From: Solirubrobacterales bacterium
GTDB lineage: Bacteria > Actinomycetota > Thermoleophilia > Solirubrobacterales > 70-9
Direction: 5' to 3'
Assembly (NCBI GenBank): GCA_023958085.1
Contig: JAMLGI010000002.1
Span: 62,001-126,000, forward strand
Length of the DNA: 64,000 bases
Both the position numbers and the translations under genes were made by a program. Position 1 is the stretch's first letter, and each line of letters opens with the position of its first letter. A model generated the notes under the pieces. The model searched no databases. It saw only the letters and a list, made by a program, of their open reading frames with translations, and had not been told where the DNA came from. This document shows, one piece after another, positions 35,529 to 52,371 of this stretch.

Positions 35529-36935
35529 ATGAACTCAGACCAGCCTGCCGGACCCCCAAACCCCGACCATCAGCCCGTCTCGGGGAAAGCACTACGCCGG
35601 GAAGTTCCGCGCAAGAGCCACGGCGAGTGGGAACCACAGCCCGGTCGTGACCCGATCGGGATCCTTCTGGCGCAGGAGATGGCCCGGGTGCCGGAGCTGC
35701 TGCCGATCCGGCACGGCCGGATGGCCGCCTCCCCGTTCGCCTTCTACCGGGGTGGGGCCGCGATCATGGCGGCCGATCTCGCCCCCACCCCGGCCACCGG
35801 AATCCGGGTGCAGGCCTGCGGGGACGCTCATATCTCGAACTTCGGCGGATATGCCGCCCCGGACCGGCGGCTGATCTTCGACCTGAACGACTTCGACGAG
35901 ACCCTTCCCGCCGCCTGGGAGTGGGACGTCAAGCGGATGGCCGCCAGCGCGGTCATCGCCGCCCGGGAAAACGGGGCCGATCGCCAGACCGCCCGGCAGA
36001 TCGCCCGGACCGGAGCCCGCCGCTACCGGGAGGTGATGCGGGAGCTTGCCGACCGGAGCTTCTGGGAGGTTTGGCACACCCGGCTCGACGTCAAGCGGAT
36101 GATCAAGAGGCTCGAACGGGCCCGCGGCAAGGAGGCGGCGATCGACCTTCGCCGAGACACCGTGAAGGCAGGCCGGAAGGACAGCGACCGCGCCCTGCGG
36201 AAGCTCACCGAGACCCGTGGCGACGACCCTCGCTTCGCCAGCCGCCCGCCGCTCCTGGTGCCGGTCGAGGAGCTCGCCGGTGAGGAAGTGCTGCCGGGCC
36301 TCTGGCATCGGCTGGAAAACCTGCTCGCGATCTATCGCGAGACGCTCCCCGACGACCGCCGGTTTCTGCTCGACCACTATCGATTCGTCCACATGGCCCG
36401 CAAGGTGGTCGGGGTCGGCTCGGTCGGCACCCGGGCCTGGGTGCTCCTGCTGGTTTCCGGCAGGCGCCGGGATCCGCTGGTGCTTCAGGTGAAACAGGCC
36501 CAGGAGTCGGTCCTCGCACCCTACGCCGGAGCCTCCGCCTACCTGCGCCAGGGACAACGGGTGGTCGAGGGCCAGCGCCTCACCCAGGCGGCCAGCGACT
36601 CCCTGCTCGGCTGGCTCTGGGCCGAGGGACCGGAGGGTGTGGAGCGGGATTTCTATGTGCGCCAGCTCTGGGACGGAAAGCTCTCGTTCAACACCGACGC
36701 GATGGACGAGGGGAACCTGACCGCATACGTCTGGGCCTGCGGCGGTGCCCTGGCCCTCGCCCACGCCCGCTCCGGTGACCGGGTCGCGATCGCCGAGTAC
36801 CTCGGCCGGAGCGATACCTTCGACCGGGCGATCGCCGAGTTCAGCGACCGCTATGCGGCCCGTAACCGGCTCGACTACGAGGAGTTTCTCGCCCGGATCG
36901 ATTCCGGCGAGATCGAGGCCACAACCGGGGTTTAG
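35529..36935 (+). CDS. DUF2252 family protein
   Basis: A 468-residue protein of the DUF2252 family, which has distant similarity to aminoglycoside-phosphotransferase/kinase folds. Visible hallmarks are MAASPFAFYRGGAAIM, then CGDAHISNFGG and IFDLNDFDETLPAAWEWDVKR, where the DxHxxN and DFD elements look like kinase catalytic and metal-binding loops. Later RKVVGVGSVGTRAW and KQAQESVLAPY are also typical. Function unknown. The stop codon TAG lies inside a 7-bp target-site duplication made by a MITE-like insertion, so the element landed exactly at the gene end without changing the protein. Confidence 0.88.
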   Translation: MNSDQPAGPPNPDHQPVSGKALRREVPRKSHGEWEPQPGRDPIGILLAQEMARVPELLPIRHGRMAASPFAFYRGGAAIMAADLAPTPATGIRVQACGDAHISNFGGYAAPDRRLIFDLNDFDETLPAAWEWDVKRMAASAVIAARENGADRQTARQIARTGARRYREVMRELADRSFWEVWHTRLDVKRMIKRLERARGKEAAIDLRRDTVKAGRKDSDRALRKLTETRGDDPRFASRPPLLVPVEELAGEEVLPGLWHRLENLLAIYRETLPDDRRFLLDHYRFVHMARKVVGVGSVGTRAWVLLLVSGRRRDPLVLQVKQAQESVLAPYAGASAYLRQGQRVVEGQRLTQAASDSLLGWLWAEGPEGVERDFYVRQLWDGKLSFNTDAMDEGNLTAYVWACGGALALAHARSGDRVAIAEYLGRSDTFDRAIAEFSDRYAARNRLDYEEFLARIDSGEIEATTGV

Positions 36936-36936
36936 C

Positions 36937-37089
36937 CTGTATCCACCGAAATCCGTGGATGCCGAGGTGTGCACGGCCAAGCCAGACGGAAATCGGTGTG
37001 CAGCTCGGGGTGAACCCCCTCGCAAACACCGATTTTCGTGTGGCGCCGTGCCGTGGGCGTTCCGGCGCCGCGCAGATCGGTGGATCCAG
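36937..37089. mobile_element. MITE-like 153-bp palindromic element
   Basis: Terminal inverted repeats of 13 bp with one mismatch (CTGTATCCACCGA at 36937-36949; reverse complement CTGGATCCACCGA at 37077-37089). A 7-bp direct repeat GTTTAGC flanks it on both sides (36930-36936 and 37090-37096), the form of a target-site duplication. The inside continues as an imperfect palindrome: GGAAATCGGTGT pairs with ACACCGATTTTC, GCACGGC with GCCGTGC, and the centre is the hairpin GGGGT-ga-ACCCC near 37012. No coding capacity. It lies between convergent genes and can also fold as a bidirectional terminator. Confidence 0.75.
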
Positions 37090-37104
37090 GTTTAGCTCCC
37101 CTGG

Positions 37105-37953
37105 TCAGCCGAGCCAGGATCTGAGCAACGGCCAGGGGTCCAGCAGCCTCCCGCGACTGCGGATCTCGATGTGGAGGTGGCAGGGGGTGCTCGCCGCGTT
37201 GCCCGTCTTGCCGATCGACCCGAGACGCCGACCCGCCCTCACCCGCTGGCCCTTGCGTACCCGGGCCGGTCGGCGCATGTGGGCGTAGAAGTAGGTGCGC
37301 CGTTCGGCCTCCCCCTTCAGCACCACGTAGTTGCCGTAGAGCACCGGATCGGTTCCGATCTTGAGGATGCGGCCGGAACGGACCGCTACCAGCGGGGTGC
37401 CGCAGCGCCCGGTTGCATCAAAGCCTTCGTGGGTCCGCCCCCCGGTCCTTCCGGCCCCGAACTCCCCTACCGGGCCACGGACACCGTGCCGCCCGGCGAT
37501 CGGGTGGCGGTGACCGAACAGTCGAAACCTTGCGACTCGGTGGAAGGGTCCACCGACCGGACCAGCCACGGCGACGTACCGGCCGGGCGGGGCCAGCCTG
37601 CCGGATCGGGCGCGGCCGTTCCATACGAGCCGGTGCCAGCGTCCGGGGGCCGCACCCTGCGCCCCGCCGACCACGAAACGCCTGACGGTACGCCCGTTCC
37701 GGCGCCGTTTGAACCGGACCGCGACCGGGATCCGGTCACGGGCCCGGAAGCGAAAGAAGACCCGCAGCTGACGGACCGAGGCCGGAACCGACCGCTTGGG
37801 CACAACCTCGCCCCGGGTCAGACGGAAGCCGGGTCCGTCGTCTGGCGTCGAAGCCGTCGCCGTGGCAGCCGCGAAGGTCAGCACGACAAGCGCTGCGGGG
37901 ACTGCACGGGTGAGGAAACGGCCGGAATCCGGTATTCGCCCAGTTCGCCGCAC
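37105..37953 (-). CDS. Secreted M23-family metallopeptidase
   Basis: A 282-residue exported protein: signal AVPAALVVLTFAAATATAS (about 16-34), a beta-rich middle part, and a C-terminal M23/LytM domain. Zinc ligands are visible as HEGFD (H-x3-D), HM in FYAHMRRP and HLHIEIR. Such enzymes cut peptidoglycan cross-links, or act as catalytically weak regulators; here the ligand set looks complete. GTG start, 16 bp after clpP on the same strand. The middle domain may target the cell wall. Confidence 0.87.
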   Translation of the reverse strand: MRRTGRIPDSGRFLTRAVPAALVVLTFAAATATASTPDDGPGFRLTRGEVVPKRSVPASVRQLRVFFRFRARDRIPVAVRFKRRRNGRTVRRFVVGGAQGAAPGRWHRLVWNGRARSGRLAPPGRYVAVAGPVGGPFHRVARFRLFGHRHPIAGRHGVRGPVGEFGAGRTGGRTHEGFDATGRCGTPLVAVRSGRILKIGTDPVLYGNYVVLKGEAERRTYFYAHMRRPARVRKGQRVRAGRRLGSIGKTGNAASTPCHLHIEIRSRGRLLDPWPLLRSWLG

Positions 37954-52288: not shown

Positions 52289-52371
52289 AAAGGGATCCTA
52301 AGAGCCTTTCCAGGTAGGCGGTGCTTGCCAGCGCACCGCTCGGTTGGTTCTCGTCCCCGGCAACCCCACCC

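What the first reader, a model, noticed from the sequence alone, without database searches (positions are those of the whole stretch)
36930..37096. MITE-like palindrome inserted exactly at a stop codon
A 153-bp element (36937-37089) has 13-bp terminal inverted repeats with one mismatch and is flanked by a perfect 7-bp direct repeat GTTTAGC. The left repeat contains the TAG stop of the DUF2252 gene, so insertion with target duplication left the protein intact. The inside is also an extended imperfect palindrome with a central hairpin. It has no transposase and may now work as a terminator between convergent genes.
Basis: seen in the sequence. Interest (0 to 1): 0.7.

Follow-up and report, generated by a model that had tools for sequence, protein, structure and literature searches.

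The report
Stop-codon MITE of the IS1380 family
A 155-base "hitch-hiker" transposon with no genes of its own sits exactly on the stop codon of a gene; it belongs to a family spread through soil actinobacteria and is probably moved by IS1380-type transposases, whose 5-base landing site (C/T-T-N-A-A/G) can contain any of the three stop codons, which explains how it lands there without harm.

Summary
Confirmed and extended. The element is a real non-autonomous transposon (MITE). The left copy carries the TAG stop of the DUF2252 gene. The genome holds three more full copies (95, 95 and 89% identical) at other sites. The same tips bound 1.6-1.8 kb elements in many Actinomycetota that encode IS1380-family transposases, so the MITE is an IS1380 derivative. 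No IS1380 transposase was found in this draft genome; a full copy lies in a same-genus genome. A covariance model finds the family patchily across the order (9 of 101 genomes, about 25 copies in one). The whole element is one long hairpin kept by compensatory changes (20 of 46 pairs). The stop-codon position is not a freak: 12 of 41 copies overlap a native stop codon, against 9% of all CTNAG sites. In that set the rate equals CTNAG sites lying outside genes (27%), so target motif plus purging of gene-breaking insertions suffices. No empty site was found, because the locus is not syntenic in relatives. The terminator role is untested; there is no U-tract.

The parts
36936..37090 (.). MITE (non-autonomous IS1380-type element), 155 bp
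   Evidence: four full copies in own genome, boundaries by alignment, covariance-model family
36931..36935 (+). left copy of 5-bp target duplication TTTAG, containing the TAG stop codon (36933-36935)
37091..37095 (+). right copy of 5-bp target duplication TTTAG
36936..36949 (+). left terminal inverted repeat CCTGTATCCACCGA
37077..37090 (-). right terminal inverted repeat CCTGGATCCACCGA (minus strand)
36981..37044 (.). central long hairpin of the full-length palindrome
   Evidence: conserved with compensatory changes
35529..36935 (+). DUF2252 gene (PF10009) whose TAG stop lies in the target duplication; its C-terminus matches relatives
37105..37953 (-). convergent M23 peptidase gene (PF01551)

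Best explanation
The feature is a 155-bp MITE derived from the IS1380 family. A transposase of that family, acting in trans, recognises the CCTGGATCCACCG tips, cuts the element out or copies it, and inserts it at a YTNAR (best CTNAG) site, duplicating the 5 bp. Because YTNAR can contain TAA, TAG or TGA on one strand or the other, native stop codons are frequent non-disruptive targets: the gene keeps its stop in the left copy of the duplication. Shown by sequence: copies, tips, TSDs, target motif, matching transposase-bearing elements, fold conservation. Inferred: mobilisation in trans and the source of the transposase (absent from this draft genome). After insertion the element would be transcribed from both convergent genes as a very stable hairpin at their 3' ends; an effect on RNA ends or stability is possible but untested.
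For: Four full dispersed copies in the own genome, at 100, 95, 95 and 89% identity, with different flanks and TSDs TTTAG and CTTAG. Same tips and CTWAG flanks in 16 of 232 genomes of the order. In a 1614-bp element (L083:1494-3107, TSD CTTAG) they flank an IS1380-family transposase (NF033539 E 4.9e-92; PF13701 E 1.6e-46). A scan of 85k species stopped at 119 loci; every title that names a group is actinobacterial. Tip-pair spans pile up at 150-170 bp (26) and 1500-1850 bp (18), with none for a reversed-tip control; all 15 long elements tested match the IS1380 transposase. Elements found by transposase alone have 5-bp TSDs of the same type: 13 of 18 perfect, 5 with one mismatch (one spurious row, a 1858-bp span in L287, left out). 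MITE copies found by covariance model alone have flank consensus YTNAR and 20 of 41 perfect TSDs. Same-genus full IS1380 in G003.
Against: No IS1380 transposase found in the own genome, although the assembly is a 31-contig draft. No empty-site allele found. The direct parent IS of this MITE subfamily (matching beyond about 14 bp) was not found. Two of the four own copies lack a perfect TSD (L003, L004); in L004 another repeat abuts that end.
Confidence: 0.93

Rival explanations
1. A structured RNA or DNA element (bidirectional terminator or RNase III site) conserved for a host function at gene 3' ends rather than a selfish mobile element.
For: Full-length hairpin with 20 of 46 pairs showing compensatory double changes, covariation score 0.364 against 0.126 in shuffles; 12 of 41 copies abut a stop codon; convergent genes here.
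Against: Copies are dispersed at unrelated loci with target duplications, patchy between genomes (9 of 101; none in the 17 other genomes of the genus), and share tips with transposase elements. No Rfam match reaching its gathering score. No terminator-like site.
Confidence: 0.1
2. The transposase actively prefers stop codons or gene 3' ends beyond its 5-bp motif.
For: In the broader CTWAG-selected set 39 of 218 element ends overlap a called stop codon against 16 of 334 control sites; stop versus intergenic OR 3.3, p 7.5e-5; a cruder classifier gave OR 11.
Against: In the set found without using the flank, 12 of 41 is the same as control CTNAG sites that lie outside genes (24 of 88, p 0.84). 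Gene calls were home-made, and the CTWAG set is motif-selected and mixes many taxa.
Confidence: 0.15
3. Chance palindrome near a stop codon.
For: none
Against: Unique in the window, none in shuffles; multiple copies in the genome.
Confidence: 0.01

Closest known systems
IS1380 family insertion sequences (e.g. IS1247)
   Same: Tips begin CC, about 1.6-1.8 kb relatives with NF033539/PF13701 transposase, 5-bp target duplication (IS1247: 1672 bp, DR 5, PMC3281130)
   Different: 155 bp, no transposase; the target motif YTNAR was derived here and was not found stated in the papers searched
Bacterial MITEs such as MITEAba12 (PMC6382973) and TIMEs (PMC4133298)
   Same: short, non-autonomous, TIRs shared with a resident or related IS, TSDs, fixed length
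   Different: other parent families (ISAba12; Tn3); here the parent is IS1380, the whole element is one covarying hairpin, and the TSD motif can contain stop codons
piggyBac transposons
   Same: IS1380 transposases are used as their prokaryotic outgroup; short palindromic TSD TTAA (PMC10813416)
   Different: 4-bp TTAA target, eukaryotic, longer transposase; resemblance only

Membership tests
MITE (class of element) | terminal inverted repeats | tested here: met
   14 bp, 1 mismatch
MITE (class of element) | target site duplication | tested here: met
   TTTAG here, CTTAG in L002; 20 of 41 family copies perfect
MITE (class of element) | several dispersed copies, no coding capacity | tested here: met
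   four full copies; no transposase ORF within 155 bp
MITE (class of element) | observed transposition | not testable with these tools
   needs strains or an assay; no empty site found
IS1380 family derivative | tips shared with elements that encode IS1380 transposase | tested here: met
IS1380 family derivative | same TSD length and motif as the autonomous elements | tested here: met
   5 bp, CTWAG/YTNAR for both
IS1380 family derivative | direct parent IS with internal homology | tested here: not met
   no IS with homology beyond the tips was seen among those fetched (by inspection)
IS1380 family derivative | transposase present in the same genome (not strictly required of a MITE) | tested here: not met
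   none by protein or Pfam search; draft genome
Structured RNA family (Rfam) | match above gathering score | tested here: not met
   best 15.9 bits against 42.5

The most novel reading that the evidence does not exclude
The full-length hairpin is itself under selection (20 of 46 pairs kept by double changes across genera), so the MITE may work as a portable, stop-codon-seated 3'-end module (RNase III site or bidirectional end block) for convergent genes, inserted by a transposase whose target motif makes such landings safe.
Probability: 0.15. Interest if true: 0.65.

Novelty: new member of a known kind. Interest (0 to 1): 0.42.

Why it matters
It ties a widespread, apparently undescribed MITE family of actinobacteria to the IS1380 family, gives that branch a target motif (YTNAR), and explains simply why such elements sit on stop codons: the motif can hold a stop codon and the duplication preserves it, so genes survive. 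It also gives a clear case where covariation in a repeat does not by itself mean a host RNA gene.

Tried and rejected
Rfam search: nothing above threshold. Terminator/promoter scan: nothing. Empty-site search through M23 and DUF2252 orthologues in 17 same-genus genomes: no synteny. Active stop-codon targeting: suggested by the CTWAG-selected set, not supported in the set found without flank selection. The first control used ORF length only and was replaced by gene calling. A 7-bp TSD was rejected because L002 and the IS copies show 5 bp. Papers: no description of an IS1380-derived MITE or a YTNAR target was found in eight searches of the open library, which is weak negative evidence.

Full report
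Observation. The nearest direct repeat is GGTTTAGC (8 bp), but comparison with other copies shows that only TTTAG is target duplication: the flanking GG/C happen to equal the element's own ends. The element is 36936-37090, 155 bp, with tips CCTGTATCCACCGA and CCTGGATCCACCGA. It is the only such TIR+TSD combination in the window and none arises in ten shuffles. The left TTTAG holds the TAG of the DUF2252 gene (35529-36935, PF10009), and a convergent M23 peptidase gene ends at 37105.

Copies. In the own genome (2.44 Mb, 31 contigs, 95% complete) there are three further full copies at 95, 95 and 89% identity and several end fragments. L002 has TSD CTTAG. L003 and L004 have one intact flank (TTTAG, CTTAG) and a damaged other one. 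No full copy is found by DNA search in 100 relatives.

Parent. The tip plus flank pattern GGTGGATCCAGGYTWAG occurs in 16 of 232 genomes of the order, often as facing pairs: about 155 bp apart in G102, G147 and G069, and 1614 bp apart in G175. The 1614-bp element encodes a 443-aa IS1380-family transposase. Facing tip pairs in those loci cluster at 150-170 bp and 1500-1850 bp, with zero for a reversed-tip control. All 15 long elements checked match the IS1380 transposase at 36-57% identity. Elements found through the transposase protein, so without looking at flanks, show the same 5-bp duplications (CTTAG, CTAAG, TTTAG, CTAAC, GTTAG, CTGAG; 13 of 18 perfect). IS1247 of this family is published with a 5-bp DR (PMC3281130). 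The own genome lacks a detectable IS1380 transposase; a same-genus genome has a full one, tips CCTGAATCCACCGT. Mobilisation in trans, or by a since-lost element, is inferred.

Family and fold. Aligned in the right orientation, the window element and MITEs of G102, G147, G069 and G023 are homologous. Their common fold is one end-to-end hairpin; 20 of 46 pairs show changes on both sides with pairing kept, 95% of cells pair, and sliding the partners by one base destroys this. The structure was derived from these sequences, which favours it, but the excess is large. A covariance model from 10 sequences finds the family in 9 of 101 relatives, including genomes not used to build it (G025, G050, G071, G073, G077, G084), with about 25 copies in G023 and none in the other 17 genomes of the genus. 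Compensatory change may reflect selection on the hairpin or hairpin-templated correction of palindromes; this cannot be told apart here.

Stop codons. For 41 family copies found by the model, the flank consensus is YTNAR (C56/T20 of 82, T70, N, A74, G64/A14). 12 of 41 overlap the stop codon of a called neighbouring gene, using TAA, TAG or TGA; one (L390) serves the stops of two convergent genes at once. Of all CTNAG sites in the same loci 24 of 261 overlap a stop (odds ratio 4.1, p 9e-4), but of those not inside a gene 24 of 88 do (27%; p 0.84 against 29%). Target motif plus loss of gene-breaking insertions therefore accounts for it. A CTWAG-selected set over many taxa gave extra enrichment over intergenic sites (OR 3.3); it is motif-selected and rests on home-made gene calls, so active targeting stays open.

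Locus history. DUF2252 orthologues in the genus mostly end at the same residue, usually with TGA, so the protein end is intact. Relatives carry 3-4.5 kb of other genes between DUF2252 and M23, hence no clean empty site.

Function. With a fold of -100 kcal/mol and no U-tract, an intrinsic terminator of the classical kind is not supported; an RNA-stability or RNase III role is only conjecture.

Taxonomy.

Noticed in passing
window 52298-52342; L317, L318, L319: A second palindromic repeat family (about 165 bp, tips about CCTATCCCGGTAGG, TSD CTTAG/CTAAG) has 11 matches in the genome and is nested against ends of the first MITE; a 45-bp piece lies in this window.
   Followed up: partly
loci L105-L213: MITEs with interiors unrelated by BLAST in Bifidobacteriaceae/Propionibacteriaceae, Acidimicrobiia and Solirubrobacterales all have lengths of 153-158 or 163-166 bp, a step of about one DNA turn; most of those folded outside the Acidimicrobiia group form full-length hairpins.
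   Followed up: partly
L179:5360-5414, L102:2115-2172, L178:118-159: Very short (42-58 bp) elements made almost only of the two tips; those in L179 and L102 have perfect 5-bp duplications.
   Followed up: no
L009:1501-1560: A diverged MITE end lies immediately beside what looks like a tRNA gene (not checked with a tRNA finder).
   Followed up: no
G095 (Conexibacter) and G200: Six to seven IS1380 transposase copies per genome at YTNAR-type sites, suggesting recent activity and good material for an assay.
   Followed up: partly
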